From contig JAGBKI010000066.1 in the NCBI GenBank assembly GCA_017933995.1, positions 26,075-90,074 on the forward strand: DNA of 64,000 nucleotides, read 5' to 3'. The position numbers were made by a program, and so were the translations under genes. The notes beneath the pieces were generated by a model, which saw only the letters and a list, made by a program, of their open reading frames with translations, was not told the DNA's origin and did no database searches. This DNA is from Bacteroidaceae bacterium. Its GTDB lineage: Bacteria > Bacteroidota > Bacteroidia > Bacteroidales > Bacteroidaceae. Position 1 is the stretch's first letter, and every line of letters begins with the position of its first letter. Positions 8,417 through 59,906 of the stretch are shown piece after piece.

Positions 8417-8546
8417 GGGTAAGTAAAAATGAATAATTAAAAAGTAAAAATTGGGTTACGCACACTGGCGGTGTCCCGCAGCATTGCCATCATCATCTTT
8501 TACCTTTTAATTTTTAATTATTACTTGAATGAAGTTTACTTACCCT
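8417..8546 (-). repeat. Heptad-armed intercistronic element E1
   Basis: Read on the minus strand it begins at the stop of the 213-residue gene with an A-rich arm of AGTAAAA/ATTAAAA units (right arm 8494-8525), a core of about 40 bp (8453-8493), and the complementary T-rich arm (8421-8450) ending just before the ATG at 8410. An outer pair GGTAAGTAAA / TTTACTTACC brackets the whole. Confidence 0.75.
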
Positions 8547-9177
8547 CGTCGGCATCAGCGGGCTTGGGTTCTTTCTTGGCCAGCATAATGACGTTGAAGG
8601 CGTATTCGCTCATCCACTCGGCGGAGTAGCCCAACTGGTGGTGTCCCTGGCGCACATTGGCCACGGCGGTGCGGACGGCGGCATCCTTCCAGTTGTCCTT
8701 GGTGAGGATGTCCTGCACGGTGCGCTCGGTCATGGCGCGCAACGTGCCTTTCATAAAGCCGGGCAGACGGAACTTCCACTTCATCAGGTTGCCCATCAGC
8801 ATCATCAGTTCCTGCGAAAAGCCCTGGAACTGGTACAGGTAGCGTTGCATAGCCTGCAAGTTGCGGCAATTTTTCTTCACGCTGCCGTCAATTTCATGGA
8901 AGAAGTTCTCGGACAAGCCGTAGATGTCGATGAGCATCTTGCGGCTGCGATTTTTCTCGCTCACACCAAGTTTGTTGCCTGCCGTGGGCACCTTGAGGGT
9001 GCGCTTGAACTCGCGCAGGTCGGGCAGTGCGGCGAGGTTCGTTATGCCCAGCGAGGAGGCCATGAGGCTTTGGTAGTACACGCGGATGAGCATCATAAAG
9101 TCCTCGATGCCCCCCACGCGCCACCCGGCCTCGCCGACGCTGGGCTTTCGTCGGAAAAGTTTGCTTAAAAATGACAT
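8536..9177 (-). CDS. Conserved hypothetical protein
   Basis: A 213-residue protein with no signal peptide, membrane segment or motif that I recognise. It starts MSFLSKLFRRKPSVGEAG, a basic amphipathic N-terminus, and is then helical and rich in Met, Arg and Lys (for example QELMMLMGNLMKWKFRLPGFMKG). It ends in a charged KKEPKPADADEGK tail. The uninterrupted frame, sensible start and promoter upstream support a real gene; it resembles uncharacterised Prevotella/Bacteroides proteins. It is the likely first gene of the group leading to zapA and rny. Confidence 0.75.
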   Translation of the reverse strand: MSFLSKLFRRKPSVGEAGWRVGGIEDFMMLIRVYYQSLMASSLGITNLAALPDLREFKRTLKVPTAGNKLGVSEKNRSRKMLIDIYGLSENFFHEIDGSVKKNCRNLQAMQRYLYQFQGFSQELMMLMGNLMKWKFRLPGFMKGTLRAMTERTVQDILTKDNWKDAAVRTAVANVRQGHHQLGYSAEWMSEYAFNVIMLAKKEPKPADADEGK

Positions 9178-9205
9178 AAGTTGGGTTTCGGTTTGTGTTT
9201 GGCTG

Positions 9206-9237
9206 CGAAAGTACAGCTTTTTTACCGAAACGGCAAG
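9206..9237 (-). promoter_or_regulatory. Promoter for the 213-residue hypothetical gene
   Basis: Minus-strand TACTTTCG (9206-9213, one mismatch to TAnnTTTG) with CTTG 20 bp upstream (9234-9237). The upstream box sits in the same GCTTGCCG context as the promoter at 3489-3519. Confidence 0.45.
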
Positions 9238-9302
9238 CTAAACGTGGGATAAAGTGCGCTTTACCCCACGTCGGCTGAAGTTTCAGGCCAAATGCGGCGC
9301 GT

Positions 9303-10007
9303 TCAGAAAAGCGTACAAGCCACGCTGTCCACAGCGGCGAACTGCCGGAGCAGGCTGGCCGTGTACGCAAGTGCCTCTTCAACCGCTGCACGGTCGCCGT
9401 GGTAGCCGTTGATGAGGATGAGCAAGCGGCGCGTATCGGGCGTGATGCGCGTGCGCATGGAGTCGCTCGTTGGCGTAGCGAAGGCACCGAGCGCGTCGCG
9501 GTAGACGGGCATGTTCAAAATATGGAGCGACCCGCGCCCAATGGCTTCATAGGGTTCTTCGTCGCGTCCCAGGCCAAGCGAAGCCTCGCTGCCCCCTACC
9601 CTATCGGCATCGATTACGCCGACGGAGCAGCCCGTGCGGAGCGAAACCAAATTGCCGAGGTCTACGGCCAAACCGACGCGGAACAAATCCTTGCCCTGTA
9701 ACAACCGGCGTGCCAGTTGCTCACACGAAGGGCGGTAGCGCGAGGGGTCGAGCCCAGCAGCGCGATAGGCTTCGCGCGTTTCGCGGATTCCCTTGCGCTC
9801 GCGGACGGAAAGCGTGTCGTAGTGTGCACGCAACTGCACGGCCTCAGCCTCAATCAAGTCCCAAAGCGGTTGCGGTGTGGCGGCGGCAGCAGCGGGACAG
9901 TCGCATTCCAGCGCGCCGCCCACGAAACGTGGTGCCACGGCGCGCAGTTCAGTCGCGACCGAAAGCGAGATACGGCCTGCGGCGGCCTTTTTCGTTTCTT
10001 CCATCAT
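9303..10007 (-). CDS. B3/B4 tRNA-binding domain protein
   Basis: A 234-residue stand-alone B3/B4 domain, the fold used for editing in the beta subunit of phenylalanyl-tRNA synthetase. Supporting features are the IRETREAYRAAGLDPSRYRPSCEQLARR segment (given here only as a landmark near residues 75-103), LVSLRTGCSVGVIDAD, and a C-terminal TRRLLILINGY stretch. Stand-alone forms are thought to act on misacylated tRNA or free amino acids, but this is not shown for this family. Two ATG codons are adjacent at the start. The 21-bp array lies between its start and the histidine kinase stop. Confidence 0.8.
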   Translation of the reverse strand: MMEETKKAAAGRISLSVATELRAVAPRFVGGALECDCPAAAAATPQPLWDLIEAEAVQLRAHYDTLSVRERKGIRETREAYRAAGLDPSRYRPSCEQLARRLLQGKDLFRVGLAVDLGNLVSLRTGCSVGVIDADRVGGSEASLGLGRDEEPYEAIGRGSLHILNMPVYRDALGAFATPTSDSMRTRITPDTRRLLILINGYHGDRAAVEEALAYTASLLRQFAAVDSVACTLF

Positions 10008-10063
10008 ATACCTTATTTATATATAGTGCGGGATAAATCTCACGCAGTGTGGGGTAATTCTAC

Positions 10064-10147
10064 AAATTAAGCCTTAATTTGTACAAACTAAGCCTATATT
10101 TCGCCAAACTAAGCCTTAATTTGTAGAAACTTAGGCTTAATTTGGAG
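10064..10147. repeat. Array of four 21-bp dyad units, copy A1
   Basis: Four units of exactly 21 bp (10064, 10085, 10106, 10127). Each has an 18-bp conserved dyad of the form AAACTAAGCCTTAATTTG followed by three variable bases. Flanks TAATTCTAC (left) and GATTTGCGTGGG (right) are related to those of the copies at 47185 and 55021. Confidence 0.9.
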
Positions 10148-10271
10148 ATTTGCGTGGGTTTACGCGAGTTTTTCGTGGGCTCTGTCGGTTTTTATGGGGC
10201 GACAAAACCGTCTGACTATGGGAATCGGAAGCGTCCGAATCCTATGATGAGGCTTGGGAGGAGTGAAACGG

Positions 10272-11456
10272 TCAAACCAAGGCCGTCTCGATGCAGAACG
10301 TGGTGCCGTGGCCGGGCTGGCTGTCGCGGACGTAGATACGCCCGCCGTGGTATTCCTCGACAATGCGCTTGGCCAGCGACAGGCCCAGTCCCCAGCCGCG
10401 CTTCTTGGTGGTGAAGCCGGGGCGGAACACGTTCTTGAAGTCCTTGCGGGGGATGCCCTTGCCGGTGTCGGTGACGAGGATGACGGCGCGCCCCTCGCGC
10501 AGGGCGAGGCTGAGGCTGAGGCGCCCCATGCCGCCGGGAATGGCGTCGATGGCGTTGCGGCACAGGTTTTCGAGCACCCACTGGTAGAGCGGGGCGCAGA
10601 GCATGGCCTTGGCGGCCTCGGCCTCGGGTTCGATGCGCAGGCTGACCTTGACCTGCTCGGGCGCGCGGCGCCGCATATATTCGTAGGTGGCGCGCAGCGT
10701 GTCGCTGAGGCGCGAGGGGACGAGTTCGGGGCGGCTGCCGATTTTCGAGAAGCGCTCGGCCACGAGTTGCAGCCGCTCGACGTCCTTTTCCATTTCGGGC
10801 AGCAGTTCGTCGTCGGGGTACGTCTCGCGCAGGATTTGGCTCCAGCCCATCAGCGAACTGAGCGGCGTGCCGAGCTGGTGCGCCGTTTCGCGCGACAGAC
10901 CCACCCACACGCGGTTCTGCTCGGCGCGCTTGGACGAAAGGATGGCGAAGATGGCCACAAAAAGGAACACGGCCATCACACCGAGCTGTATGTAGGGGTA
11001 GCGGGCGAGGCGTTGCAGCATCACGCTCTCGCCGTAGCAGATTTGCAGCGTGCCGAGGCTTTCGGTGCTGCCCGGCTGCGAGAGGGGGAGGCGCAACACC
11101 TGGCCGCTGCGGCGCATGTCGCGCGCCCGCCGCTGCACGCTGCCCACGCTGTCGGCGCGCTCGGAACGGGTGAGCGACACGTTACGGCAGTCGAGCAGGT
11201 TGTCGGCCTCGTCGAGCACAATGACGGGGATGGTGTGGTTGCTCTCCATTACCTTGAGCACCAGGCTGAGGTCGGTCTCTTCGTCGGCCTCCACCATGGC
11301 GCGCATGGCCTCCGCCCACACCTCGACGTTGCGCCGCTCCTCGTCCTGGAGGTCGCGCGTGAGGCTGTAGGACACCAGCAGCGACGCCGCCACAATCACC
11401 ACGGCGGCGGCCACAAGCGCTATCCTGACGTTGCGCAGGCGGTCGGTCCAGAGCAC
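10272..11456 (-). CDS. Membrane sensor histidine kinase
   Basis: A 394-residue kinase with two membrane helices (about 10-31 and 155-173) bounding a roughly 120-residue extracytoplasmic sensor. The H-box is LSRETAHQLGTPLSSL with the phospho-accepting His at 193, followed by the N-box (ENLCRNAIDAI), G1 (DTGKGI), F-box (VFRPGFTTK) and G2 (GWGLGLSLAKR). There is no response regulator beside it, so its partner is elsewhere. The start is GTG at 11456. It follows the Na/Pi cotransporter gene on the same strand across element E2, so a phosphate-linked role is possible but unproven. Confidence 0.92.
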   Translation of the reverse strand: MLWTDRLRNVRIALVAAAVVIVAASLLVSYSLTRDLQDEERRNVEVWAEAMRAMVEADEETDLSLVLKVMESNHTIPVIVLDEADNLLDCRNVSLTRSERADSVGSVQRRARDMRRSGQVLRLPLSQPGSTESLGTLQICYGESVMLQRLARYPYIQLGVMAVFLFVAIFAILSSKRAEQNRVWVGLSRETAHQLGTPLSSLMGWSQILRETYPDDELLPEMEKDVERLQLVAERFSKIGSRPELVPSRLSDTLRATYEYMRRRAPEQVKVSLRIEPEAEAAKAMLCAPLYQWVLENLCRNAIDAIPGGMGRLSLSLALREGRAVILVTDTGKGIPRKDFKNVFRPGFTTKKRGWGLGLSLAKRIVEEYHGGRIYVRDSQPGHGTTFCIETALV

Positions 11457-11464
11457 AGGCTTTG

Positions 11465-11636
11465 AAGTAATAATTAATAATTAAAAATTAAAAAATAAAA
11501 GTTGAGTTACTCTTCGTCTCGGTTGCTGCCTCCGTCTTTTCCATCGTGCAGTTTCGTCGCGAAGCCCGTTGTGTTTGCGGCTGCATCGCAGCCGCCCAAG
11601 GGCAAACAGTAACTCAACTTTTACTTTTTAATTGAT
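11465..11636 (-). repeat. Heptad-armed intercistronic element E2
   Basis: The arms 11486-11511 and 11608-11633 pair over 25 of 26 bases. The core contains GGCTGCATCGCAGCC (about 11579-11593) preceded by GTTGTGTTTGC; the reverse complement of this core is closely matched at 51410-51440 in element E8. It fills the gap between the Na/Pi cotransporter stop and the GTG of the histidine kinase. Confidence 0.88.
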
Positions 11637-13328
11637 TTACCGCCTCCCCATCCTGGCCTGCAAGACGTTGATGACGTAGTCGCCGAGTTTCTCGCACTCG
11701 CTGATGACGTCCATGTACATCGTGCCGACGGCGTAGTTGTACTCGTGGGCGTCGATGGAGACGATGTTCTGCGTGCGCAGCTGGTCGCGGTAGTTGTTGA
11801 TTTCGTGCTCGATGTTGTACGAGCGGTTGATGTCGAAGTCGCTCTTGCGGCCTCCCAGCAGGCGGTTCATCTGTTCGAGGCTGGCGTCCACAAGGAGGAA
11901 CATCTGGTGCATGTGCTGCTTCTGCGCGTCGGTGAAGTGCTCGTTGCCGGCCAGCTTGCGGTTGATGGTGCGGGCGATGTTGAAGCACGAGTCGCCGATG
12001 CTCTCCAGTTCGCTTATCTGGCGCAGCATGGAGCGTATCTTCTCCTTCGACTCGGGCGACAGGCGGGCCTCCGAAACCTCGTCGAGGTACTTCGCGATTT
12101 CTATCTCCATGTTGTCGCTGATGCCCTCGTACTTCTGGATGCGCGTGTACTGCTTCACGAAGTCCTCGTTCTTGAGGTCGAGCAGCGTCTTGCAGATGCC
12201 GAACATCTTCTGCATCCTTGCGCCGAACGAGGCAATCTCCTTCTGCGCGGCCAGCAGCGACAGTTCCGGCGTTTCGAGCATACCACCCGTGATGAACTGC
12301 AGTTTGGAATCCTCCTCCTCCTCGGTGGCCTTCTTGGGCTTGATGACGCGGCAGACGAACTTCTCAATCTGCGGCACGAACCAGATGAGCAGCAGCGTGT
12401 TCGACACGTTGAAGGCCGAGTGGAACGCCGCCAGCACCATCGACGCCTGCACGGCGAAGCCCGGGTCGGTGGCCTTCATCGCGGGGTCGAAGCCCACGAG
12501 GCTGCACACCGCACCGTAGAAAGGCTTGAGCAGGATGAGCACCCAGATGACGCCCAGCACATTGATGCTCATGTGGGCGAAGGCGGCGCGCCGCGCCTGC
12601 GTGTTGGCCGTCATCGCCACGATGTTCGACGTGATGGTCGTGCCGATGTTCTCGCCCAGCACCAGCATGATGCCCTGGTCGATGTGGAGCACGCCCGTGG
12701 AGCACAGCGTCATCGTGATGGCCATAATAGCCGCCGACGACTGCACGCAGAGCGTCAGCACCGTGCCCATAAAGAGGAACAGCAGGGAGTTCCAGATGGT
12801 CGGCGCGTTGAAGTGGGCGAAGAAGCCGGTGATGGCGCCCGTCGTGTCGTTCACCACGAGGTCGGAACCCGTCTCTTTCAGCGTCGTGAGGCCCAGGAAC
12901 AGGAAGGCGATGCCGAACAGGAAGTCGCCGCCCACGCGCCGCCGCTTCATATAACTGAGGATGATGCCGATAAAGAACGCCGGCCACACGAAGTCGCCGA
13001 TGTTGAAGCCGAAGCCCAGCGACATGATCCAGGCCGTCACCGTCGTGCCGATGTGCGCGCCCATAATCACACTGATGGCCTGCACCAGCGTGAGCAGGCC
13101 GGCGTTGACGAACGACACGGTCATCAGCGTCGTGGCCGTACTCGACTGCACGGCGGCGGTGACGAACATGCCCGTAAGCATACCCGTGAAACGGTTGGTG
13201 GTCATCGCGCCCAGCACGTGGCGCAGCTGCGGGCCGGCCATCTTCTGCAGGGCTTCGCTCATCGACTTCATACCGAACATCAGCAGGGCAAGCGAGCCGA
13301 GGAGCTTGAGGATAATCATTAGGGACAT
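11637..13328 (-). CDS. Na+/phosphate cotransporter with C-terminal PhoU-like domain
   Basis: A 563-residue inner-membrane protein. The first 340 residues form the NptA/PNaS domain with the duplicated QSS signatures VQSSTATTLMTVSF and VQSSAAIMAITMTL and further helices; the last 200 residues form two PhoU-like helical bundles. It should import phosphate with sodium, the PhoU part modulating it. The frame extends 19 codons upstream, but MSLMIILKLLGSLALLMFG from the ATG at 13328 gives the expected hydrophobic start. A possible minus-strand -7 box TAATTTTG lies at 13468-13475. Confidence 0.93.
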   Translation of the reverse strand: MSLMIILKLLGSLALLMFGMKSMSEALQKMAGPQLRHVLGAMTTNRFTGMLTGMFVTAAVQSSTATTLMTVSFVNAGLLTLVQAISVIMGAHIGTTVTAWIMSLGFGFNIGDFVWPAFFIGIILSYMKRRRVGGDFLFGIAFLFLGLTTLKETGSDLVVNDTTGAITGFFAHFNAPTIWNSLLFLFMGTVLTLCVQSSAAIMAITMTLCSTGVLHIDQGIMLVLGENIGTTITSNIVAMTANTQARRAAFAHMSINVLGVIWVLILLKPFYGAVCSLVGFDPAMKATDPGFAVQASMVLAAFHSAFNVSNTLLLIWFVPQIEKFVCRVIKPKKATEEEEDSKLQFITGGMLETPELSLLAAQKEIASFGARMQKMFGICKTLLDLKNEDFVKQYTRIQKYEGISDNMEIEIAKYLDEVSEARLSPESKEKIRSMLRQISELESIGDSCFNIARTINRKLAGNEHFTDAQKQHMHQMFLLVDASLEQMNRLLGGRKSDFDINRSYNIEHEINNYRDQLRTQNIVSIDAHEYNYAVGTMYMDVISECEKLGDYVINVLQARMGRR

Positions 13329-13741
13329 AAGTGTTTGTGAAAAAGTTGTCAGCGGTGGGGACGCGCGGTTGGTGGTGGCGGGCAAGGTTTTCTTGTTACA
13401 CCGTTGCTTTGCTCGTGGTGGCTTTTACACGGCCATATTGCCGCCGCGCGGTTTGCAGCGTCGCGTACAAAATTACGTCCCCACGCCCCGCCGTGTTAAA
13501 GTTTCGTTAAAAAACTTTTACATTCTTGCAAAAAAAGCCAAGCCCGCGCGCCCAAACCCCTTTGTTTCAGGAAAAAAGCGTACCTTTGCGGGCTGAAATG
13601 ACGTTAATCCCTCCAATAGACAGCGCAAAGCGATGTTTGCCAGGCAGTGAGGGGCAGTCAGACGTAAGCGTGATGAGGTATGTCTCGCCCCCTTTGAAGT
13701 AGCACGCCACGACCTAGTTTCTGCAACGCCTTAAATATACA
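13329..13741. other. Divergent intergenic region with promoters for Na/Pi gene and toxin-antitoxin pair
   Basis: No gene is visible. A minus-strand -7 box TAATTTTG is at 13468-13475 (toward the cotransporter) and a plus-strand -7 box TACCTTTG at 13581-13588 (toward the antitoxin). The 150 bp between the latter and the antitoxin ATG would be an unusually long leader. Confidence 0.45.
13581..13588 (+). promoter_or_regulatory. -7 box upstream of the toxin-antitoxin pair
   Basis: TACCTTTG in the same TACCTTTGCG context as the promoter at 21521. A TTTG lies at 13561-13564 with a 16-bp spacer, shorter than usual, so the upstream box is uncertain. Confidence 0.45.
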
Positions 13742-13999
13742 ATGAAGATGATAAGGAAAGCAACCACCGTCCGTTTGCCCGACTACCTGCTGGCCGATAT
13801 GAGTGCGGCAGCACGTCGCAAAGGAGTATCTGTGAGCCGTTTCATAGAGGAAATCGCTGCTGCGGCTATCTACAAACCTAACGCTGAAACGATGGAGGCA
13901 TTGCGCGAGTGCCGTTCTGACGCTGAACTTGAAGACTTCAACCCCGCCGATCTCGACCAGTATATTTATGCCACGCCTCAAACAGTCCACGCAATTTAA
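13742..13999 (+). CDS. Ribbon-helix-helix antitoxin of a type II TA pair
   Basis: An 85-residue protein. The N-terminal RKATTVRLPDYLLADMSAA followed by RKGVSVSRFIEEIAAAA is a classic ribbon-helix-helix DNA-binding domain; the acidic C-terminal part (SDAELEDFNPADLDQ) would wrap the toxin and neutralise it. The complex probably represses its own promoter. Its last 32 bases overlap the toxin gene, a hallmark of coupled expression. Confidence 0.85.
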   Translation: MKMIRKATTVRLPDYLLADMSAAARRKGVSVSRFIEEIAAAAIYKPNAETMEALRECRSDAELEDFNPADLDQYIYATPQTVHAI

Positions 14000-14243
14000 G
14001 AAAGACCTCAAAAGGTATCTTCGTAGGCCGTCCAAATTGCGGGCGTTACGCGAGGTTACGGAACACTTGAAGGCGACAGGACATGTACCGCAGGAGTTCA
14101 AGCCCCATAAACTTCACGGTGTCTTTGAAGGTTGTATCGAGTGTCACGTCGAGGATGACTTTTTGTTGATTTGGATAGACATGGCGACAGATGTAATAAA
14201 ACTGGTTCGCCTCGGCACGCACCACGAACTCTTCGGAAACTGA
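13968..14243 (+). CDS. YafQ-family mRNA interferase toxin
   Basis: A 91-residue RelE-superfamily toxin that would cut mRNA on the ribosome. Compared with E. coli YafQ (from memory), it keeps the KPHKLHGVFEGCIECHVEDD segment with two histidines and an acidic pair, and the C-terminal LVRLGTHHELFG, which carries the catalytic histidine. The Trp after the acidic pair in YafQ is Phe here. The open frame begins earlier, but ATG 13968 (MPRLKQSTQFKKDLKRY) gives the normal family N-terminus and the usual overlap with the antitoxin. Horizontal acquisition is likely for such modules. Confidence 0.88.
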   Translation: MPRLKQSTQFKKDLKRYLRRPSKLRALREVTEHLKATGHVPQEFKPHKLHGVFEGCIECHVEDDFLLIWIDMATDVIKLVRLGTHHELFGN

Positions 14244-14310
14244 AGCGGATATAGCCTTACTAGAAAATAATTACAACACACATACAAGAATATAAACCAC
14301 ACCAAAACCA

Positions 14311-15669: not shown

Positions 15670-15700
15670 GCGCCGTTTGGCACGTTTTTGGCTAAACACA

Positions 15701-15763
15701 GGGCGGGCTTGCGGGTTGGAAGGCTTTCCGCCGGACACCCGGAAGCCCGCCCCAATGTTTTTT
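15701..15763 (+). terminator. Intrinsic terminator after tig
   Basis: GGGCGGGCTT (15701-15710) pairs with AAGCCCGCCC (15743-15752), with further pairing inside, and is followed by TTTTTT at 15758-15763. Confidence 0.75.
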
Positions 15764-15766
15764 AAC

Positions 15767-15936
15767 AAGGAGTTATGGGGAGTTAGAGGTAGTTAGTAGG
15801 AGTTAGGGGCCGTTTGGCAAAAGCCACGGCAGCCGCCTGAACTCTTCTCCTGCACCACTCTCCCGCCACCACTATCGGCACTTTAACTCCCTCTAACTCC
15901 TTCTAACTCCCCTTTAACTCCCCTTTAACTCCCCAT
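15767..15936 (+). repeat. Heptad-armed intercistronic element E3
   Basis: The left arm (15769-15808) is built of GGAGTTAG-type units, the right arm (15882-15934) of the complementary TAACTCC units at 7-11 bp spacing. The core begins GCCGTTTGGCAAAAGCC (15808-15824) and includes CTCTTCTCC and two CCACCAC-like blocks; it is nearly the same as the core of E4. The right arm ends two bases before the clpP ATG. Confidence 0.9.
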
Positions 15937-16608
15937 ATGATTAAAGACTTCAAAAAGTTCGCCCAGGACCGCACGGGAATCAGCGGCCTGGCCCTCGACG
16001 GCGTAATCAACGCGCAGAGCCAGTACCTCAACCCCTATATCCTTGAGGAGCGCCAGCTCAACGTCACGCAGATGGACGTCTTCTCGCGCCTGATGATGGA
16101 CCGCATCATCTTCCTCGGCACGCAGATTGACGACTACACCGCCAACACCCTCCAGGCGCAGCTCCTCTACCTCGACAGCGCCGACCCCGGCAAGGACATC
16201 AGCATCTACATCAACTCCCCCGGCGGCAGCGTCTACGCCGGCCTGGGCATCTACGACACGATGCAGTTCGTGCAGTCGCCCGTGGCCACCATCTGCACGG
16301 GTATGGCCGCCTCGATGGCCGCCGTGCTGCTTGTCGCCGGCACCGAGGGCAAGCGAAGCGCACTGCCCCACAGCCGCGTGATGATACACCAGCCCCTCGG
16401 CGGCGTGCAGGGACAGGCAAGCGACATCGAAATCACCGCCCGCGAGATTCAGAAACTCAAGAAAGAACTCTACACCATCATTGCCGACCACTCCCACACC
16501 GACTACGACAAGGTATGGGCCGACAGCGACCGCGACTACTGGATGACGGCGCAGGAGGCACTCGAATACGGCATGATTGACCGCGTGCTCGCCAAGGGCG
16601 CGAAGTAA
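15937..16608 (+). CDS. clpP: ATP-dependent Clp protease proteolytic subunit
   Basis: A 223-residue serine protease that forms the tetradecameric chamber fed by ClpX. The catalytic triad is Ser126 in GMAASMA, His151 in RVMIHQP and Asp200 in SDRDYWMTAQEA. The oxyanion-loop SPGGSVYAG and the end GMIDRV are as expected. The ATG follows element E3 directly; clpX follows across element E4. No ambiguity about function. Confidence 0.98.
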   Translation: MIKDFKKFAQDRTGISGLALDGVINAQSQYLNPYILEERQLNVTQMDVFSRLMMDRIIFLGTQIDDYTANTLQAQLLYLDSADPGKDISIYINSPGGSVYAGLGIYDTMQFVQSPVATICTGMAASMAAVLLVAGTEGKRSALPHSRVMIHQPLGGVQGQASDIEITAREIQKLKKELYTIIADHSHTDYDKVWADSDRDYWMTAQEALEYGMIDRVLAKGAK

Positions 16609-16615
16609 TTTTTAT

Positions 16616-16787
16616 TGGAGTTAAGGGGAGTTAGAGGGAGTTGGTAGGAGTTAGGAGCCGTTTGGCAAAAGCCCCGGCTACCGCAATCCGGCTTAAACTC
16701 TTCTCCCACACCACTTTCCCGCCACCACATACGGCTTTTAACTCCCTCTAACTCCCCCTTAACTCCCCAATAACTCCCTTTCTCTTT
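16616..16787 (+). repeat. Heptad-armed intercistronic element E4
   Basis: The left arm (16617-16656) is built of GGAGTTAG units and the right arm (16737-16780) of TAACTCC units. The core starts GCCGTTTGGCAAAAGCC (16657-16673) and repeats the block order of E3. Together E3 and E4 bracket clpP as direct copies. Confidence 0.9.
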
Positions 16788-24711: not shown

Positions 24712-24712
24712 A

Positions 24713-24826
24713 GTTATTTAGTTAATCAGTTGATGAGTTTATCAGTTAATCAGTTATTAGTTGATTAGTTTATGAGTTGATAAGTTATTTAGTTAATCAG
24801 TTGATGAGTTTATCAGTTAATCAGTT
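24713..24826 (-). repeat. Heptad array element E5 with 43-bp direct repeat
   Basis: A gap between nfeD-like and SPFH genes made only of AGTTAAT/CAGTTGA/TGAGTTT-type 7-bp units. A 43-bp segment (24713-24755) is repeated exactly at 24784-24826, the second copy overlapping the NfeD stop codon. Unlike other elements it has no GC-rich core and the copies are direct, not inverted. Confidence 0.88.
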
Positions 24827-31787: not shown

Positions 31788-31841
31788 CAGAAAACTTGTT
31801 TTCGTGCTTGCTATGCCGAGTGCGAGTGACTTCGGCGGCGC

Positions 31842-44330: not shown

Positions 44331-44371
44331 CAGTGCTTGCAAGGGATTTTCATCGGCCTTCAGTCGTGCCG

Positions 44372-44415
44372 CAAGGATTAAACCTCATTAAACCTCTTAA
44401 ACCTCATTAAACCTC
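44372..44415 (-). repeat. Half element E6 (upstream arm only)
   Basis: On the minus strand, GAGGTTTAA-type units at 10-11 bp spacing follow the oxidoreductase stop, then a CGGCACGACT core (about 44361-44371), with no complementary arm before the DUF4421 gene. The arm matches that of E9 and the core matches E9 and E10. Confidence 0.7.
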
Positions 44416-44419
44416 TTTC

Positions 44420-45412: not shown

Positions 45413-45413
45413 G

Positions 45414-45452
45414 AAGACTATAGAGACTTTAGAGACAATAGAGATTTTAGAG
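45414..45452 (-). repeat. Short-unit array E7 before the oxidoreductase start
   Basis: Minus-strand CTCTAAAAT, CTCTATTGT, CTCTAAAGT, CTCTATAGT: four 9-bp units ending one base before the ATG and overlapping the RapZ-C stop. There is no core or opposite arm. Confidence 0.75.
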
Positions 45453-51341: not shown

Positions 51342-51351
51342 TCTTTCTTAG

Positions 51352-51515
51352 TGAAAAATTAAAAAGTAAAAGTTAAAAGTGGAGTTACTGTTTGCTGGAG
51401 AGTGGCCAGGGGGCGGCTGCACTACAGCTGCAAACACAACAACAGACGAGAAACTGGGAGGCTGGGCTTGTCACAGCATACTCAACTTTTACCTTTTACT
51501 TTTTAATTATTAACT
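51352..51515 (-). repeat. Heptad-armed intercistronic element E8
   Basis: The arms 51357-51385 and 51480-51508 pair over 27 of 29 bases. The core GGGCGGCTGC..CAGCTGCAAACACAAC (51411-51440) is the reverse complement of the core of E2, 40 kb away. It lies between the 5'-nucleotidase stop and the agmatine deiminase start. Confidence 0.88.
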
Positions 51516-51522
51516 AAACGAA

Positions 51523-53193: not shown

Positions 53194-53216
53194 AAAGTAT
53201 AGTTGTTTCCGAGGCG

Positions 53217-53248
53217 CAAAGATAGTGATTAGAGGGGGCAAAAGCAAC
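53217..53248 (-). promoter_or_regulatory. Promoter for 5'-nucleotidase
   Basis: Minus-strand TATCTTTG (53217-53224) with GTTG 20 bp upstream (53245-53248), about 25 bp before the ATG. Confidence 0.55.
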
Positions 53249-53264
53249 GCATTGCCCCGTTTTG

Positions 53265-53296
53265 TTTGCTTTTGACCAGCCTATTCACTATCTTTG
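53265..53296 (+). promoter_or_regulatory. Promoter for DUF4301 gene
   Basis: Full match: TTTG (53265-53268), 20-bp spacer, TATCTTTG (53289-53296); it is back to back with the 5'-nucleotidase promoter. Confidence 0.7.
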
Positions 53297-53339
53297 CGCC
53301 ACCGACCTGAACTATACCTTAATTTATATACCACCCATT

Positions 53340-54857
53340 ATGCTTACAGCACAAGACCGCGCGCTGCTGGACCGTAAAGGCATCAGCGAAGCGCAACTCA
53401 GGGAGCAGCTCGAACGTTTTGCCAAGGGCTTCCCCTATCTCAAACTCAAAGGCGCTGCCGCCGTGGGGCAGGGCATTCTCCGTATCGAGGAGGCCGAACA
53501 GGACAAACTCCTCAAAGCCTGGGACGACTACCTCGCGCAGAATCCCACCGTCGTGAAGTTCGTGCCTGCAAGCGGTGCAGCCAGCCGCATGTTCAAGGAT
53601 CTCTTCGCTTTTGTGGACGGCGACCACGACGAACCCGAAACAGCTTTCGAAAAACTCTTTTTCGGCAAACTTGGCACCGCTGCGTTCAAGGCCGATATCG
53701 ACGCAGCCTGCACCAGGCTCTTTGGCAAAGACACCGACGCTCTGATGCGCGAAGGCCGTTACAAGGACGTGGCGCGCACCCTGCTCGGCAAGGAGGGGCT
53801 GAACTACGGCGCCCTGCCCAAAGGGCTGCTGAAGTTCCACCGCTACACCGACAGCGTGCGCACACCCGTCGAGGAACATCTTGTAGAGGCCGCGCTCTAT
53901 GCCTGCGGCGGCGACGGCAAAGCGCAAGTCCACTTCACCGTGTCGCCAGAGCACCGCGCGCTGTTCGAAGCCCTCGTGAGCGAGGTCACACCCGTCTACG
54001 AAAAAGTTTTCGGCGTGAAATATCACGTCACATTCAGCGAACAAAGCCCCGCCACCGACACCGTAGCGGCCAACGCCGACAACACGCCGTTCCGCAACGC
54101 CGACGGCTCGCTGCTGTTCCGTCCCGGCGGACACGGTGCCCTCATCGTCAACCTCAACCGCATCATGGCCGACGTGGTGTTCGTGAAAAACATCGACAAC
54201 GTCGTGCCCGACCGCCTCAAGGACGACACCGTGCGCTACAAAAAGCTCCTGGCCGGACTGCTCGTCACCCTCCAGGAACGCACCTTCGCCTACATGCGCC
54301 GCCTCGACCAAGGCGCCACGCGCACAGAGCTGCTGGAAATGCTCCGATTCCTTGAAGACGAACTCTGCTGCCACAGTGACAAGGCCGAAAGCCTCGACGA
54401 CAAAGCCCTGGCGCGCTACCTCCGCACCAAGTTCAACCGCCCCATGCGCATCGCCGCGATGGTGAAAAACGTAGGCGAGCCAGGCGGCGGCCCCTTCCTT
54501 GCGTACAACAGCGACGGCACCGTGAGCTGTCAGATACTCGAAAGTTCACAAATCGATATGGCCGACCCGAAGAAGAAAGCCCTTTTCGAAAAAGGCACAC
54601 ACTTCAACCCGGTCGACTTGGTTTGCGGCCTGCGCAACTATCGCGGCACAATTTACGACCTGCCTTGCTACGTGGACGAGCAGACAGGCTTCATCTCCCA
54701 CAAAAGCAAGGACGGACGCGAACTTAAAGCCCTCGAGCTGCCCGGTCTGTGGAACGGTGCAATGTCGGATTGGAACACTGTCTTCGTGGAAGTGCCCCTC
54801 TCGACGTTCAACCCCGTAAAGACCGTGAACGACCTCTACCGCGAACAGCACCAATAA
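53340..54857 (+). CDS. DUF4301 protein
   Basis: A 505-residue cytosolic protein of the DUF4301 family, widespread in Bacteroidota and of unknown function. Visible features are KFVPASGAASRMFKDLF near residue 75, which resembles the phosphate-binding loop of sugar-nucleotidyltransferase-like proteins, FRPGGHGALIVNLN near 255, and KNVGEPGGGPFLA near 375. These Gly-rich loops suggest nucleotide-sugar or nucleotide binding, which is inference. ATG 53340 is chosen over 26 upstream codons that overlap the promoter. Confidence 0.85.
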   Translation: MLTAQDRALLDRKGISEAQLREQLERFAKGFPYLKLKGAAAVGQGILRIEEAEQDKLLKAWDDYLAQNPTVVKFVPASGAASRMFKDLFAFVDGDHDEPETAFEKLFFGKLGTAAFKADIDAACTRLFGKDTDALMREGRYKDVARTLLGKEGLNYGALPKGLLKFHRYTDSVRTPVEEHLVEAALYACGGDGKAQVHFTVSPEHRALFEALVSEVTPVYEKVFGVKYHVTFSEQSPATDTVAANADNTPFRNADGSLLFRPGGHGALIVNLNRIMADVVFVKNIDNVVPDRLKDDTVRYKKLLAGLLVTLQERTFAYMRRLDQGATRTELLEMLRFLEDELCCHSDKAESLDDKALARYLRTKFNRPMRIAAMVKNVGEPGGGPFLAYNSDGTVSCQILESSQIDMADPKKKALFEKGTHFNPVDLVCGLRNYRGTIYDLPCYVDEQTGFISHKSKDGRELKALELPGLWNGAMSDWNTVFVEVPLSTFNPVKTVNDLYREQHQ

Positions 54858-54896
54858 GCCTGCGCATACACGCTCCACAGCATCCCCACCACCTTC

Positions 54897-54932
54897 AGTC
54901 CGCACCGGCGACCGCCCGGCGCGGACTTTTTC
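54897..54932 (+). terminator. Terminator after DUF4301 gene
   Basis: AGTCCGC (54897-54903) pairs with GCGGACT (54921-54927), with further CCGG/CCGG pairing inside and TTTTT following. Confidence 0.78.
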
Positions 54933-55020
54933 GTGCGCCGAAGCCCGGAAATTCATCACCGATAGGCCAAGAATCCTGACCAGCACGCACAAAATCCCGC
55001 CCGCAGGGGAGTAATTTTGC

Positions 55021-55104
55021 AAATTAAGGCTTAATTTGGCGAAACTAAGCCTAAGTTTGGCGAAATTAAGGCTTAATTTGTACAAACTAAGGCTTAATTT
55101 GCAG
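55021..55104. repeat. Array of four 21-bp dyad units, copy A3
   Basis: Units at 55021, 55042, 55063 and 55084. The flanks GTAATTTTGC (left) and CAGATTT (right) match those of A1 and A2. Confidence 0.9.
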
Positions 55105-55421
55105 ATTTAACCCACGATAAGAACTTTTTCAAGCGTCAGCGGCGCTTTTTGAGCCGCAGCAGTGACTTTTGCAAACGCCACTAAGGATATAGCACATCGC
55201 TTGCGGAGCACGCTTCCAGCGTGCGCCTGGAGCGATGCGGCGGGACGGCGAGAGAAAACGGACGCCTTTGCGTCCCCCAGAAGCGCAGCGGCACTCCATA
55301 ACCCCTCACAAAGCAGACGAAAACCGCTAAAAAATGCAAGCGGAAAGGAATTTGCGCCCACAAATATGCGTCGCCAAGGGCAAAAACACCGTTGCACCGT
55401 GGCCGAAAGCGCGGATTGTCT

Positions 55422-55429
55422 TAACTTTG
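55422..55429 (+). promoter_or_regulatory. -7 box very close to amidase start
   Basis: TAACTTTG nine bases before the ATG at 55439, which would give a nearly leaderless mRNA. No upstream box is clear. Confidence 0.4.
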
Positions 55430-55438
55430 CCGCTTGAA

Positions 55439-56776
55439 ATGAAGCGCGCACTGCTCACCATATTCTTCACCTGCGCCGCCCTCGCCGCGATGGCCGGGGG
55501 AAACGCGTTTGTGCTCTGCATAGACCCGGGGCACGGCGGCCACGACGCGGGCGCCGTGGGGCTGAAGGGCAAGGAAAAGGACATCAACCTCACTGTCGCA
55601 TTGGCGTTCGGCAAGATGGTGGAGCAGCGCTGCAAGGACGTCAAGGTGGTCTACACGCGCAAGACCGACGTCTACATCACCCTGCAAGGGCGTGCCGACA
55701 TCGCCAACGCGGCGCGCGCCGACCTTTTCATCAGCGTCCACACCAACAGCGTAGAAGCCGGTTCTCCCCTCGCCTACGGCTGCGAGACCTACTGCCTGGG
55801 CCAGCGAAGCCTGGGCACGAACTACAGCGTGGTGCAGACGCAGGGCCGCGTCGTGGCCGTGCAGGGCGGCAAGCAGCGGCAGGAAACCTACGACCCCTCG
55901 CGCGCCGAGAGCCTCGTGGCCTTCGACCTGCTGCACGCCGCCGGGATGGAACAGGGCGCGCTGCTGGCGCAGTGCATACAGCGACAGTACACCCGCGCGG
56001 GCCGTCCCGACAAAGGCGTGAAGGCGGGCGAGTGGCTGGTGCTGCGGCGCACCGTGATGCCCGCCGTGCTGACCGAACTAGGTTTTATCAGCACGCCCGC
56101 CGAGGAGGACTACCTGCTGAGCGAGGCGGGCGCGGCCACACTGGCGCGCTGCCTCTACAACGGCTTCGTGGAATACCGCAACGCCATCGACCACCAGCGC
56201 CGCAAACTCGTCGACCTCAACCCCGCCCCGTCGCCCCGTCCGCAGGCGGGTGTCACCGGCGGCGGCACGCAGGCGCAGCAGAGCGTCGTGCAGCAGCCCC
56301 AGCAGCCCGCACAACAGCAAAAACATCAGCAACAACAGCAACAGCAAGCGCATCCCCAGCGTCCCGCACGCCAGCAACAGCAACAGCAACAACAGCCGCA
56401 GCGCCCCGCACGCCAGCAGCACCAGCAACAACAACAGCACCAACAGCCCCAGCGCCCCGCACGCCAACAGCAGCAACAGCAACAGCAATCCGCCCAGGCC
56501 AAACCCAAGGTGTGCTTCAAGGTGCAGCTCCTTTCCAGCGCCAAGCCGCTCAAGGCCGACGACCCGCAGTTCAAGGGCGTCAAGCCCGTGGAGGAATACC
56601 GCGAGGGCAACGCCTACAAGTACACCACGGACACGTTCGAGAACGTGGCCGACGCGCGCAAGCTCAAAGGCGAACTGGCCGAAAAGTTCCCCGGCGCTTT
56701 CGTCGTGGCTTTCATTGACGGCAAGCGCGTCAGCGTGCAGGAAGCCATCGAGGCGCAGAAAGCCACGACGCGCTAA
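55439..56776 (+). CDS. N-acetylmuramoyl-L-alanine amidase with poly-Gln linker and SPOR-like end
   Basis: A 445-residue periplasmic cell-wall hydrolase. A signal peptide (about 1-20) is followed by an Amidase_3 domain with zinc ligands His32 in DPGHGGHDAGAVG and Glu46, ISVHTNS, and TELGFISTPAEE. Residues about 282-350 are a Gln-rich linker with three PQRPARQQ repeats, unusual in bacteria and encoded largely by CAG/CAA runs. The last 85 residues (CFKVQLLSSAKPLKADD and onward) look like a SPOR peptidoglycan-binding domain. ATG 55439 is chosen because it gives the signal peptide. It is followed by an MCE gene. Confidence 0.92.
   Translation: MKRALLTIFFTCAALAAMAGGNAFVLCIDPGHGGHDAGAVGLKGKEKDINLTVALAFGKMVEQRCKDVKVVYTRKTDVYITLQGRADIANAARADLFISVHTNSVEAGSPLAYGCETYCLGQRSLGTNYSVVQTQGRVVAVQGGKQRQETYDPSRAESLVAFDLLHAAGMEQGALLAQCIQRQYTRAGRPDKGVKAGEWLVLRRTVMPAVLTELGFISTPAEEDYLLSEAGAATLARCLYNGFVEYRNAIDHQRRKLVDLNPAPSPRPQAGVTGGGTQAQQSVVQQPQQPAQQQKHQQQQQQQAHPQRPARQQQQQQQQPQRPARQQHQQQQQHQQPQRPARQQQQQQQQSAQAKPKVCFKVQLLSSAKPLKADDPQFKGVKPVEEYREGNAYKYTTDTFENVADARKLKGELAEKFPGAFVVAFIDGKRVSVQEAIEAQKATTR
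56284..56490 (+). repeat. CAG/CAA-rich poly-glutamine tract
   Basis: Imperfect trinucleotide runs with three copies of a CCCCAGCGTCCCGCACGCCAG-like block, here described by its product PQRPARQ. Likely to change length by slippage. Confidence 0.85.
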
Positions 56777-56824
56777 GCCTCCCCCCCCACCATATAGTCA
56801 AGCCAAACCACCGAAACCCCACCT

Positions 56825-57826
56825 ATGAAGTTCCTGACCAAAGAAGTGAAAATCGCGCTGACGGCCATCGTCGCCGTCGTGCTGCTGTTCTTCACCATAA
56901 ACTTCCTCAAAGGCGTGAACGTGTTCAAGTCGAGCAACACGTACTACGTCCAGTTCACCGACATAGCCGGGCTGGCCGTCTCGAACGCGGTCTACGCCAA
57001 CGGCTACCCCGTGGGCATCGTGCGCGACATCGAGTACGACTACACGCGCACGGACAAGGTGGTAGTGGCCGTGGAACTCGACAAGAACATGAACATCCCG
57101 CGCGGCACGCGCGCCGAACTGGAGACCGGCCTGATGGGCGGCGTGACGATGAGCCTCGTGCTGGGCCAGAACCCGGCGGACGTCATCGCGCGCGGCGACA
57201 CCATACTGGGCGGGATGCACCTCGGCACGATGGCCAAGGTGGAGGAGATGCTCCCCGCCGTGGCCGGGATGCTGCCCAAACTCGACTCCATATTATATAA
57301 CATCAACACGCTCACCGCCTCGCCCGCCCTGGCGCAGACGCTGGGGAACGCCGCCGAGGCGTCGGCCAACCTCAACCGCCTCGTCGTGGGCCTCAACGAG
57401 ACGCTCAGCAGTTCGCTGCCGCCCTTCCTCGCCTCGCTGCAGCAGACGGGGCAGAACGTGCAGACGCTCTCGGCCTCGCTGGCCGGCAACGTGGGCAGCC
57501 TCGACGTCACCACCACGCTCGACCAACTCAACGGCACGCTGGGCGACGCACGCACCCTCATCGGCGGGCTGGAGACGATGACGCAGAACCTGCAGACCGC
57601 CTCCGAGGGCCTCAACACCACGCTCCAGACGCTCAACGCCAGCCTGCAAGGCACCGACAACACGCTCGGCCTGATGCTTAACGACCGCCAGCTCTACGAC
57701 AACCTCAACCTGACCGCCGCCAACCTCTCGCAGACCGCCGCCAGCGCCGACAGCCTGCTGCGCGACCTCAAGGCACACCCCAAGCGCTACGTCCACTTCT
57801 CGGTGTTCGGGAAGAAAGACAAGTGA
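56825..57826 (+). CDS. MlaD/MCE-family protein
   Basis: A 333-residue protein with one N-terminal membrane helix (about 7-26) and an MCE domain (about 38-115: TDIAGLAVSNAVYANGYPVG, MGGVTMSLVLG), followed by long helical heptad segments rich in Leu, Asn and Thr (about 140-310). It would be the substrate-binding part of a phospholipid-trafficking ABC system between the membranes. Permease and ATPase genes are not adjacent downstream. It follows the amidase by 48 bp. Confidence 0.92.
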   Translation: MKFLTKEVKIALTAIVAVVLLFFTINFLKGVNVFKSSNTYYVQFTDIAGLAVSNAVYANGYPVGIVRDIEYDYTRTDKVVVAVELDKNMNIPRGTRAELETGLMGGVTMSLVLGQNPADVIARGDTILGGMHLGTMAKVEEMLPAVAGMLPKLDSILYNINTLTASPALAQTLGNAAEASANLNRLVVGLNETLSSSLPPFLASLQQTGQNVQTLSASLAGNVGSLDVTTTLDQLNGTLGDARTLIGGLETMTQNLQTASEGLNTTLQTLNASLQGTDNTLGLMLNDRQLYDNLNLTAANLSQTAASADSLLRDLKAHPKRYVHFSVFGKKDK

Positions 57827-57837
57827 TTTTGGTTTCC

Positions 57838-58050
57838 GATGAGGTTTAAGAGGTTTAATTAGAGTTTAAGAGATTTAACCCATACGGCGCGAACCACATC
57901 CCATACCTCAAAAAGCCCCATCTTCCCACCCACCCCATATATCTTGTATTCCCCACATTCTTTCATAAGGTTCCGGCACGGTTTCCGCATCCAAGCGTCG
58001 CGTAGCCTTAAACCTCATTAAACCTTTTCAACCACTTAAACCTTTTCCCC
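57838..58050 (+). repeat. Heptad-armed intercistronic element E9
   Basis: The left arm (57841-57879) is built of GAGGTTTAA units, the right arm (58006-58047) of TTAAACCTY units, 10-11 bp apart. The core of about 125 bp ends with CCGGCACGGTTTC (57973-57985), shared with E10. The right arm touches the lysS GTG. Confidence 0.85.
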
Positions 58051-59787
58051 GTGAACATCCTCGAACTCTCCGAACAAGAGATAAACCGCCGCAACTCCCT
58101 CGCGCAGCTGCGCGAAATGGGCATCGACCCCTACCCCGCCCCGCTCTTCCCCGTCGACGCCACGGCAGCCGACGTCGTGGCCAACTTCAACGACGGCGAC
58201 GAGCCGCGCCAAGTGACACTGGCCGGACGCATGATGAGCCGCCGCGTGATGGGCAAGGCCAGCTTCGCCGAACTGCTCGACGCCAGCGGGCGCGTGCAGC
58301 TCTACATCACACGCGACGACATCTGCCCCGGCGACGACAAAACGCTCTACAACACCGTCTTCAAGAAACTCCTCGACTTGGGCGACTACATCGGCGTCAA
58401 GGGCTTCGTGTTCCGCACGCAGACGGGCGAAATCTCCGTACACGTGCAGTCGCTCACGCTGCTCAGCAAGAGCATCAAGCCCCTGCCCGTCGTCAAGGAG
58501 AAAGACGGCCAGACCTACGACTCGTTCGACGACCCCGAACTGCGCTACCGCCAGCGCTACGTCGACCTCATCGTCAACCCGCAGGTGAAGGACACGTTCC
58601 GCAAACGCTCGCAGGTGCTCCGCACGATGCGCCGCTTCTTCGACGAGCGCGGCTATATGGAGGTCGAGACGCCCATCCTGCAAGGCATACCCGGCGGAGC
58701 CAGCGCGCGCCCCTTCATCACCCACCACAACAGCCTCGGCACCGACCTCTACCTGCGCATCGCCACCGAACTCTACCTCAAGCGCCTCATCGTGGGCGGA
58801 TTTGACGGCGTGTACGAAATCGGCAAGAACTTCCGCAACGAGGGCATGGACCGCACCCACAACCCCGAGTTCACCTGTATGGAACTCTACGTGGCCTATA
58901 AGGACTACGAGTGGATGATGCAGCTCACCGAGCAACTCCTGGAGCGTATCTGTCTCGAAGTGAACGGCACCACCGAGGTGCAGGTGGGCGACAACCTCAT
59001 CTCCTTCAAAGCCCCGTTCCGCCGCCTGCCCATCCTCGACGCCATCAAGGAGAAGACCGGCCACGACCTCGACGGCAAGAGCGAGGACGAGATACGCCAA
59101 ATCTGCCGCGAACTCGGCCTGGAGGAAATTGACGAGACCTACGGCAAGGGCAAGATGATAGACGAAATCTTCGGCGAGTTCTGCGAGGGCACCTTCATCC
59201 AGCCCACATTCATCACCGACTACCCCGTCGAGATGTCGCCGCTCACCAAGAAACACCGCAGCAAGCCCGGCCTCACCGAGCGCTTCGAACTGATGGTCAA
59301 CGGCAAAGAGCTGGCCAACGCCTACTCCGAGCTCAACGACCCCATCGACCAGGAGGAGCGTTTCCAGGAGCAGCTGCGCCTCTCCGAAAAGGGCGACGAC
59401 GAAGCCATGTTCATCGACCAGGACTTCCTGCGCGCCATGCAGTACGGCATGCCCCCAATGAGCGGCATCGGCATCGGCATCGACCGCCTCGTGATGCTTA
59501 TGACCGGGCAGTTCTACATCCAGGAAGTGCTCTTCTTCCCCCAGATGCGCCCCGAAAAGAAAGCGCCGCGCGACAACGCCGACCGCTACACCGCCATCGG
59601 CATACCAGCCGACCTCGTACCCGTGCTGCAAAAGGTGGGCTACTACCTCGTGCAAGACCTCGCCGGCAACAACCCGCAGAAAATCCAGCAGCAGATAGGC
59701 GAAGTCCTCAAGAAGTACAAGCTCGACCTCGCCAAGCCCTCCGTCGACGACATCGCGCAGTGGCTCGTGCAACTTGACAAAGAATAA
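58051..59787 (+). CDS. lysS: Lysine--tRNA ligase, class II
   Basis: A 578-residue class II synthetase. The N-terminal OB-fold (about 55-150) binds the anticodon; motif 2 is [18 protein letters not shown] and motif 3 [16 protein letters not shown] roughly 75-residue C-terminal extension ([20 protein letters not shown] onward) is typical of Bacteroidota LysS. It starts at GTG 58051, right after element E9. Secure assignment. Confidence 0.97.
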
Positions 59788-59906
59788 TGAGTAATTAGGA
59801 GTGAGGAATTAGGAATTTCCGTCCGGCACGATTTCACATCCTCATTCCGCGCAGCCCAATTCCTAATTCCTAACTCCTAATTCCTCATTCTTAATCCCTA
59901 ATTCAA
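59786..59906 (+). repeat. Heptad-armed intercistronic element E10
   Basis: The left arm (59786-59818) has GAGGAAT/TAGGAAT-type 7-bp units starting in the lysS stop; the right arm (59858-59904) has AATTCCT/AACTCCT units. The core is CCGGCACGATTTC (59823-59835) plus CGCGCAGCCC (59848-59857). Confidence 0.88.

What the first reader, a model, noticed from the sequence alone, without database searches (positions are those of the whole stretch)
8417..59906. A family of heptad-armed hairpin elements placed between stop and start of co-directional genes
Gaps at 8417-8546, 11465-11636, 15767-15936, 16616-16787, 51352-51515, 57838-58050 and 59786-59906 share one design in sense orientation: stop codon, purine-rich array of 7-11 bp units, GC-rich core, complementary pyrimidine-rich array, start codon within about 2-15 bases. 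Partial versions are at 24713, 44372 and 45414. The unit differs by locus (TAACTCC, TTTTTAC, TTAAACC, AATTCCT, AACTGAT, ATCTCT) but both arms of one element always match each other. All lie between genes on the same strand; none is in a convergent or divergent gap. The arms can fold the intercistronic mRNA into a long stem that covers the start region. I know of heptameric tandem repeats in cyanobacteria, but not of a described Bacteroidota family with this layout.
Basis: partly seen in the sequence, partly recalled or inferred. Interest (0 to 1): 0.85.

Follow-up and report, generated by a model that had tools for sequence, protein, structure and literature searches.

The report
Paired-repeat hairpins between same-strand genes
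A gut bacterium carries many short palindromes built from inverted runs of a 7-10 base word between neighbouring same-strand genes; the word differs from place to place, and in related bacteria such palindromes are gained, flipped or swapped for others, so the layout outlasts the letters.

Summary
In 864 kb of the window's genome, 64 of 282 co-directional gaps (50-450 nt), 1 of 48 convergent and 0 of 38 divergent gaps carry such an element. No shuffled gap (0 of 945) or coding segment (0 of 215) does. Other palindromes there lean the opposite way. Unit families number about a dozen; the two arms usually, not always, share one (37 of 43). Seven element gaps could be compared with sister species: none has the arms, six are short, so these look like recent gains. 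In a second species pair one element is inverted, one has both arms changed in concert, and two gaps hold different families. I read these as dispersed palindromic repeats copied and reshuffled at DNA level, kept in this genus almost only between co-directional genes, acting as transcribed intercistronic hairpins; that last step is inferred. Similar palindromes occur in other Bacteroidales, not only in co-directional gaps.

The parts
8421..8526 (-). Heptad palindrome, TTAAAAG/GTAAAAG unit family; gap 8411-8535 between two minus-strand genes
   Evidence: inverted repeat score 20.2, arm period 7; RNA fold -31.9 kcal/mol, z -4.1
11486..11633 (-). Palindrome, same unit family, with an inner GC-rich hairpin in the core; gap 11457-11636
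   Evidence: inverted repeat score 24.6; RNA fold -62.3 kcal/mol, z -9.0; below the arm-periodicity cut; counterpart gaps in G037 and G015 -4 and 39 nt
15769..15932 (+). Palindrome with GGAGTTA-type units (period 10-11) before the clpP-like gene; a separate GC-rich hairpin precedes it in the same gap
   Evidence: inverted repeat score 26.2; the 147-nt gap of sister G015 and 132-nt gap of G037 lack the arms. Gene names here and below are recalled, no family search was made
16617..16777 (+). Second GGAGTTA-type palindrome, 81% identical to the one at 15769, between the clpP-like and clpX-like genes
   Evidence: RNA fold of 16617-16766 -70.1 kcal/mol, z -7.5; counterpart gaps in G015 and G037 22 nt each by projection, 10 nt by gene call in G015
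51348..51517 (-). Heptad palindrome, TTAAAAG/GTAAAAG family
   Evidence: inverted repeat score 30.8, period 7; RNA fold of 51348-51497 -40.8 kcal/mol, z -4.1
57842..58043 (+). Palindrome with GTTTAAGAG(G) units before the lysS-like gene
   Evidence: inverted repeat score 20.0; below the periodicity cut; counterpart gap in G015 19 nt
59786..59904 (+). Palindrome with AATTAGG units between the lysS-like and gpsA-like genes
   Evidence: inverted repeat score 27.6, period 7; RNA fold -43.6 kcal/mol, z -7.3; counterpart gaps in G015 and G037 30 and 41 nt, no arms
24712..24820 (-). Single start-side array, AACTGATT-type 8-nt units, no stop-side arm
   Evidence: period 8, score 53; inverted repeat score only 6.4
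44331..44419 (-). Single stop-side array, GTTTAATGAGG-type units plus a CCTTGCGGCACG cap, no start-side arm
45413..45452 (-). Single start-side array, CTCTATAGT-type 9-nt units

Best explanation
These are dispersed palindromic intergenic repeats whose two halves are short tandem arrays reading inward from both ends: 7-10 nt units, mostly with more G than C, a GC-rich cap, a variable core, then the reverse complement. SHOWN by sequence: abundance (65 in 864 kb, about 186 per genome if extrapolated); about a dozen unit families; absence from the seven counterpart gaps available in sister species; and, in a second species pair, loss or gain of a unit in one arm, change of both arms in concert, inversion of a whole element, and different families in the same gap. 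INFERRED: copies arise and spread at DNA level by slippage within arrays, fold-back or template-switch copying that makes one arm the complement of the other, and copying into nearby gaps, not by selection on each base pair. INFERRED: in this genus they persist almost only where genes on both sides are read in the same direction. There they would form a strong intercistronic hairpin that begins about 4 nt after the stop codon and ends about 14 nt before the next start (medians), leaving an open, almost G-free leader. The likeliest effect is to separate the two messages, as a stem that blocks exonucleases or is cut by RNase III, without shutting translation of the downstream gene.
For: Co-directional restriction and controls. 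Arms of one family in 37 of 43 gaps, permutation mean 7.9. Neighbouring gaps share a family in 16 of 91 pairs against 6.8 expected, p 0.0008, pointing to local copying. Arm-less counterparts in sister species, 7 of 7. Inversion of the L262:14782 element in G065: reverse alignment 86.6, forward 53.4; loop 21.2 against 8.0. Concerted arm change at L263:5302. A long palindrome at L264:4732 (score 68) with the same non-unit stretch of about 16 nt in both arms. An element nested in another, L256:4805, by eye. Mismatch pattern like that of other inverted repeats. Stem strength. G 5.5% in the 30 nt before the start of 64 element-borne genes against 15.2% in 122 divergent-promoter genes, and an open start region. 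In three of four families own arms are clearly more alike than arms of other elements (22.0/16.9, 24.5/12.4, 21.5/14.1).
Against: No transcript, processing or strain data. The cause of the co-directional bias is not shown, and the bias is absent in other Bacteroidales. Inversion and concerted change rest on one locus each, in another genus than the window's. In the GTTTAAG family own arms are only slightly more alike than arms of other elements (30.4/26.7), and the comparison favours 'own' by construction. Of four arm sets scored between sisters, loci 1 and 2 are more alike by position than by species and locus 6 is mixed. In silico removal of the stop-side arm raises openness before the start from 0.59 to 0.68, so a mild inhibitory effect is not excluded. 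Only 7 of 44 element gaps in the first sample had a fetched sister counterpart.
Confidence: 0.55

Rival explanations
1. A selected RNA element: the hairpin is a regulatory or processing signal between cistrons, and the arms are kept complementary by selection on pairing in the mRNA while the letters drift.
For: Near-exclusive co-directional location in this genome; strong stems; G-poor arrays close before starts (75 arrays, median distance 9 nt) and G-rich arrays close after stops; one locus with both arms changed together.
Against: No G.U excess on the mRNA strand: 74 G.U against 102 A.C in G000, 12 against 36 in 21 elements of G058 and G065, same ratio as 54 non-heptad inverted repeats of G000 (65 against 91). 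One-sided unit loss and one-sided substitutions between sisters. Arms missing from most orthologous clpP and lysS gaps printed for congeners.
Confidence: 0.25
2. Fast-evolving intrinsic transcription terminators at ends of transcription units.
For: In the G058/G065 pair several gaps without the element in one species hold another hairpin there (L263:17450, L265:3954, L264:4732, by eye); elements of G058 carry T-rich arms and two of its eight convergent gaps pass the test.
Against: In G000 elements are nearly absent from convergent gaps (1 of 48), where other palindromes do occur (9 of 48). Six of seven sister counterparts are short gaps without arms. No TTTTT within 12 nt of the end of the start-side arm in 0 of 64 elements, and none of the 25 terminator-like sites found in two scanned stretches lies at the end of a window element on the gene strand.
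Confidence: 0.1
3. A MITE- or REP-like element moved by a transposase encoded elsewhere in the genome.
For: Dispersed copies with shared caps; five matches to the Y1 transposase family PF01797 in the genome; one inverted copy and arm-less counterpart sites.
Against: A dozen unit families without a common tag. None of the five Y1 loci shows the motifs of five unit families or the caps within the fetched 1.5 kb flanks. Target-site duplication could not be tested: flanks are too diverged.
Confidence: 0.12

Closest known systems
TAACTGA heptamer direct repeats of Beggiatoaceae, Cyanobacteria and five Bacteroidetes (MacGregor 2015, PMC4679880; abstract, outline and section 10 seen)
   Same: Short-period arrays, mostly intergenic and close upstream of start codons; [quoted passage not shown] indels in 7-nt steps between strains; relatives with shorter gaps lacking the repeats; AACTGATT-type units are one of the families here
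   Different: That work centres on one unit as direct repeats, with one indirect repeat; here arrays come in inverted pairs around a core, in about a dozen unit families, at roughly 186 extrapolated sites
REP / BIME palindromes (PMC3733652; listing abstract and passages seen)
   Same: Dispersed intergenic palindromes, probably transcribed, common between unidirectional genes
   Different: REPs carry GTAG or CGTC tags, lie in convergent gaps as well, and the authors cite the frequency of GT pairs; here no general tag, convergent gaps nearly empty in G000, no G.U excess
BrickBuilt minisatellite MITE of Porphyromonas gingivalis (PMC4596501; abstract and passages seen)
   Same: Bacteroidales intergenic element with a tandem array and inverted ends
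   Different: 23-nt unit, one family with 19 copies in ATCC 33277, 49-591 nt from coding sequences; here 7-10 nt units in both arms, filling the gap
Heptanucleotide repeats (STRR/LTRR) of cyanobacteria (recalled, nothing read)
   Same: Intergenic 7-nt tandem arrays
   Different: Not described, to my recall, as inverted pairs flanking a core between stop and start

Membership tests
REP / BIME | GTAG or CGTC tag | tested here: not met
   GTAG/CTAC in the stop-side arm of 9 of 64 elements, CGTC/GACG in 5 of 64
REP / BIME | Associated Y1 (RAYT) transposase flanked by the repeat | tested here: not met
   Five PF01797 matches, none with the scanned unit motifs or caps in 1.5 kb flanks; the draft genome is 83.7% complete, so one could be missing
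REP / BIME | Found in unidirectional and convergent gaps | tested here: not met
   64/282 co, 1/48 convergent in G000; elements of other genera do lie in both
MITE | Inverted repeats at the ends | tested here: met
MITE | Target-site duplication | not tested
   Counterpart gaps without arms exist, but their flanks are too diverged
TAACTGA-type heptamer arrays | Short direct repeats close upstream of start codons | tested here: met
   75 C-rich start-side arrays in co gaps, 56 within 14 nt of the start; periods vary, not only 7
TAACTGA-type heptamer arrays | One conserved unit, direct repeats | tested here: not met
   13 clusters of three or more arrays, inverted pairs
Intrinsic terminator | Stem followed at once by a T run | tested here: not met
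   TTTTT within 12 nt after the start-side arm in 0 of 64; scans of window 8000-17500 and 51000-60500
Rfam families | Match above the gathering score | tested here: not met
   One Rfam match in the window, at 42969-43014, outside the elements; no looser search was made

The most novel reading that the evidence does not exclude
A class of bacterial intergenic element whose architecture is inherited while its sequence is not: paired inverted short-period arrays that rebuild one arm from the other, flip, exchange unit families in place and spread to neighbouring gaps, and that in one genus are confined to transcribed stop-to-start junctions, where they serve as sequence-free intercistronic insulators.
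Probability: 0.3. Interest if true: 0.82.

Novelty: new variant of a known kind. Interest (0 to 1): 0.63.

Why it matters
Nearly a quarter of the sampled co-directional gaps of 50-450 nt hold such an element (64 of 282; 64 of 529 co-directional pairs of any spacing), yet eight literature searches found no description of this layout. If the DNA-level reading is right, it is a natural case of palindromes that keep their form while exchanging their letters, and sister species give a ready test of how arms are homogenised and inverted. If the RNA reading is right, it is a widespread post-transcriptional operon feature in a major gut lineage.

Tried and rejected
Rejected: chance (0 of 945 shuffles). 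Rejected: a general property of palindromes in this genome (other inverted repeats scoring 20 or more lie 16/282 co, 9/48 convergent, 6/38 divergent). Rejected: start-codon burial. Rejected: mismatch type as a sign of RNA selection; the A.C excess first looked meaningful, but other co-directional inverted repeats have the same ratio (65 against 91, Fisher p 0.83). Rejected: a Y1 transposase flanked by the elements. Rejected: intrinsic terminators in G000. Considered and dropped: integron attC sites, recalled as palindromes between co-directional cassettes; no integrase search was made, gene order in the compared gaps follows sister species.

Limits. Genes were called with my own codon-usage caller, not a standard one. 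Family labels come from 5-mer clustering; some clusters are mixed, and 24 of 182 arrays fall in smaller clusters. The loci (L001-L060) were not used for counts. The 80 loci include some from the window's own genus. G058, G059, G060 and G061 were picked because their loci held elements, so their density is biased upward; the G060 element and two of the three G059 elements are the same as. Of 52 orthologous gaps of G058/G065, 14 have an element in at least one species; by threshold the 47 co-directional ones split 6 both, 5 G058 only, 2 G065 only, 34 neither. By eye the 14 are: 4 same element, 1 inverted, 1 both arms changed, 2 different families, 6 absent or replaced by another hairpin in one species. 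For L263:5302 the orientation between species is undecided (forward 35.2, reverse 39.6).

Literature: eight searches listed no paper describing paired inverted heptad arrays between stop and start; the library lacks most subscription journals.
Full report
WHAT IS THERE. Over the 64 co-directional elements the stop-side arm begins a median 4 nt after the stop codon and the start-side arm ends a median 14.5 nt before the start; median arm 41 nt, loop 40.5 nt. Arms consist of units of roughly 7-11 nt, followed inward by a GC-rich cap such as CCGTCCGGCACG or GGCTGCGCG; by eye the same caps occur with different units.

HOW COMMON AND WHERE. The window lies in a 2.48 Mb draft genome. A congener, G043, has a contig whose length equals that of a record deposited as uncultured Alloprevotella sp., so I take the genus to be Alloprevotella in that sense. 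I defined an element as an inverted-repeat score of at least 14, a loop of at least 10 nt and a periodic arm, in gaps of 50-450 nt. On the first 464 kb: 42 of 143 co-directional gaps, 0 of 26 convergent, 0 of 20 divergent, 0 of 945 shuffled gaps, 0 of 215 intragenic segments. On a second 400 kb with the same thresholds: 22 of 139, 1 of 22 and 0 of 18. Pooled p is 1.8e-7, and 4.9e-8 for gaps of at least 90 nt. Other inverted repeats scoring at least 20 lie 16/282 co, 9/48 convergent, 6/38 divergent, so the restriction is special to this type (2x2 test p 1.3e-6).

UNITS AND POLARITY. Clustering 182 arrays gave 13 groups of three or more, holding 158 arrays. A stop-side and a start-side array in one gap belong to the same group in 37 of 43 cases (mean of 5000 permutations 7.9, maximum 18). 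Six differ; some are clear mixtures, others may be clustering artefacts. Neighbouring gaps share a group in 16 of 91 pairs (expected 6.8, p 0.0008). In co-directional gaps, arrays nearer the start have more C than G 75 times and the reverse 5 times; arrays nearer the stop have more G 58 times, more C 29 times and are equal 3 times. In gaps without a full element, arrays near a start are C-rich 29 times and G-rich 3 times; near a stop the split is 15 G-rich, 19 C-rich, 1 equal, so the stop-side rule is weak outside full elements. Four divergent gaps hold a start-side array directly before a start codon (L067:15866, L073:18180, L254:7439, L259:16526).

RNA. Five window elements fold at -31.9 to -70.1 kcal/mol, and none of 200 shuffles each folds as well. 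The start region is not more paired than in ordinary genes; removing the stop-side arm in silico raises openness at -15..-1 from 0.59 to 0.68. The 30 nt before element-borne starts contain 5.5% G, against 15.2% for 122 divergent-promoter genes. Mismatches in the stems, read on the mRNA strand, are 74 G.U and 102 A.C; with a slightly different loop limit 77 and 102, against 65 and 91 for 54 other co-directional inverted repeats. I find no sign that pairing in the mRNA is selected. No T run of five follows the start-side arm in any of the 64 elements.

ORIGIN. For 7 of 44 element gaps of the first sample (including the two window gaps below the periodicity cut) a counterpart was available in G015, G037 or other fetched congeners. 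None has the arms. Six are short (-4 to 61 nt by projection); the gap before clpP is 132-147 nt with other content. In the printed sets of congeners most gaps flanking clpP and lysS lack arms, though a few carry arms of other units (L105, L099, L102). So these elements look like recent gains in the window's lineage. Samples of G015 and G037 show elements of their own, 3 of 21 and 4 of 55 co-directional gaps, none in 5 and 24 other gaps. G042 had 3 of 28 co gaps; G055 (27), G028 (22) and G052 (10) had none; G040, G004 and G043 had none in 20-40 kb each.

BEYOND THE GENUS. In 80 Bacteroidales loci, some of them from the genus itself, 16 of 385 co, 6 of 78 convergent and 4 of 120 divergent gaps pass; a few are not heptad-like on reading. 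The lysS-gpsA gap carries hairpins with different units in different species, while 40 of 79 species have a gap of 28 nt or less there. In G058, a Prevotellaceae draft genome chosen because it held elements, 14 of 59 co and 2 of 8 convergent gaps pass, one of the two convergent ones not heptad-like; G060 has 1 of 22 co, G059 2 of 36 co and 1 of 11 convergent (partly the same elements). G065 has 7 of 70 co, 2 of 20 convergent, 0 of 17 divergent. The co-directional restriction is therefore not general.

HOW THEY CHANGE. G058 and its relative G065 (74-93% identity in flanking coding DNA at the 14 gaps) share 52 comparable gaps, 14 with an element in at least one. At L262:14782 the flanks align forward but the element aligns in reverse, loop included (86.6 reverse, 53.4 forward); four other same-element or same-family pairs align forward. 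At L263:5302 the two arms within each species match better (29.0, 31.0) than the same arm between species (23.4, 22.4). At loci 1 and 2 arms are more alike by position, and at L263:11459 one species has perfect arms and the other does not. At L261:10252 one 8-nt unit is missing from one arm only. At L263:10390 and L263:12682 the species hold different families; independent gains could explain this. At L264:4732 both arms carry the same stretch of about 16 nt that is not part of the units. These patterns fit slippage, fold-back or template-switch copying and recombination between arms; the mechanism is inferred.

VERDICT. The feature is real, abundant and, in this genus, confined almost wholly to co-directional gaps. 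It is best described as a family of dispersed palindromic repeats with interchangeable short-period units. An intercistronic role in message separation is plausible, but the sequence evidence does not show selection on pairing. It resembles the heptamer arrays of PMC4679880 and REP palindromes without meeting all defining features of either.

Noticed in passing
window 10056-10151, 47126-47323, 55012-55109: A 21-nt minisatellite (AAACTAAGCCTTAATTTG type) with inverted halves; similar copies lie in co, convergent and divergent gaps of the sampled genome. It recalls the 23-nt BrickBuilt array of P. gingivalis.
   Followed up: partly
L080:7655-7900, L061:1167-1407, L061:12883-13126, L062:18673-18912, L308:929-1491: A long palindrome family (GACGCTGAAAGCGTC ... 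CCGCAGGTTCGC); a related palindrome lies in the gap upstream of a 151-aa Y1 transposase gene, possibly a REP/RAYT-like pair.
   Followed up: no
window 42969-43014: Rfam match to Acido-Lenti-1 RNA (40.9 bits) inside a palindrome in a convergent gap.
   Followed up: no
window 31757-31957: 85-nt tandem repeat with inverted arms (GCATAGCAAGCA...).
   Followed up: no
L067:10917, L076:3059, L076:4628, L241:17155: Cores of several elements are filled with AAGCCCAGC or CATAAACCCC short-period arrays without an inverted partner, a second layer of repeats.
   Followed up: no
co-directional gaps of G000, G058, G065: Stem mismatches show more A.C than G.U on the mRNA strand (74:102 in G000, 12:36 in G058+G065); other co-directional palindromes of G000 show the same (65:91), suggesting a strand-linked mutation bias.
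   Followed up: partly
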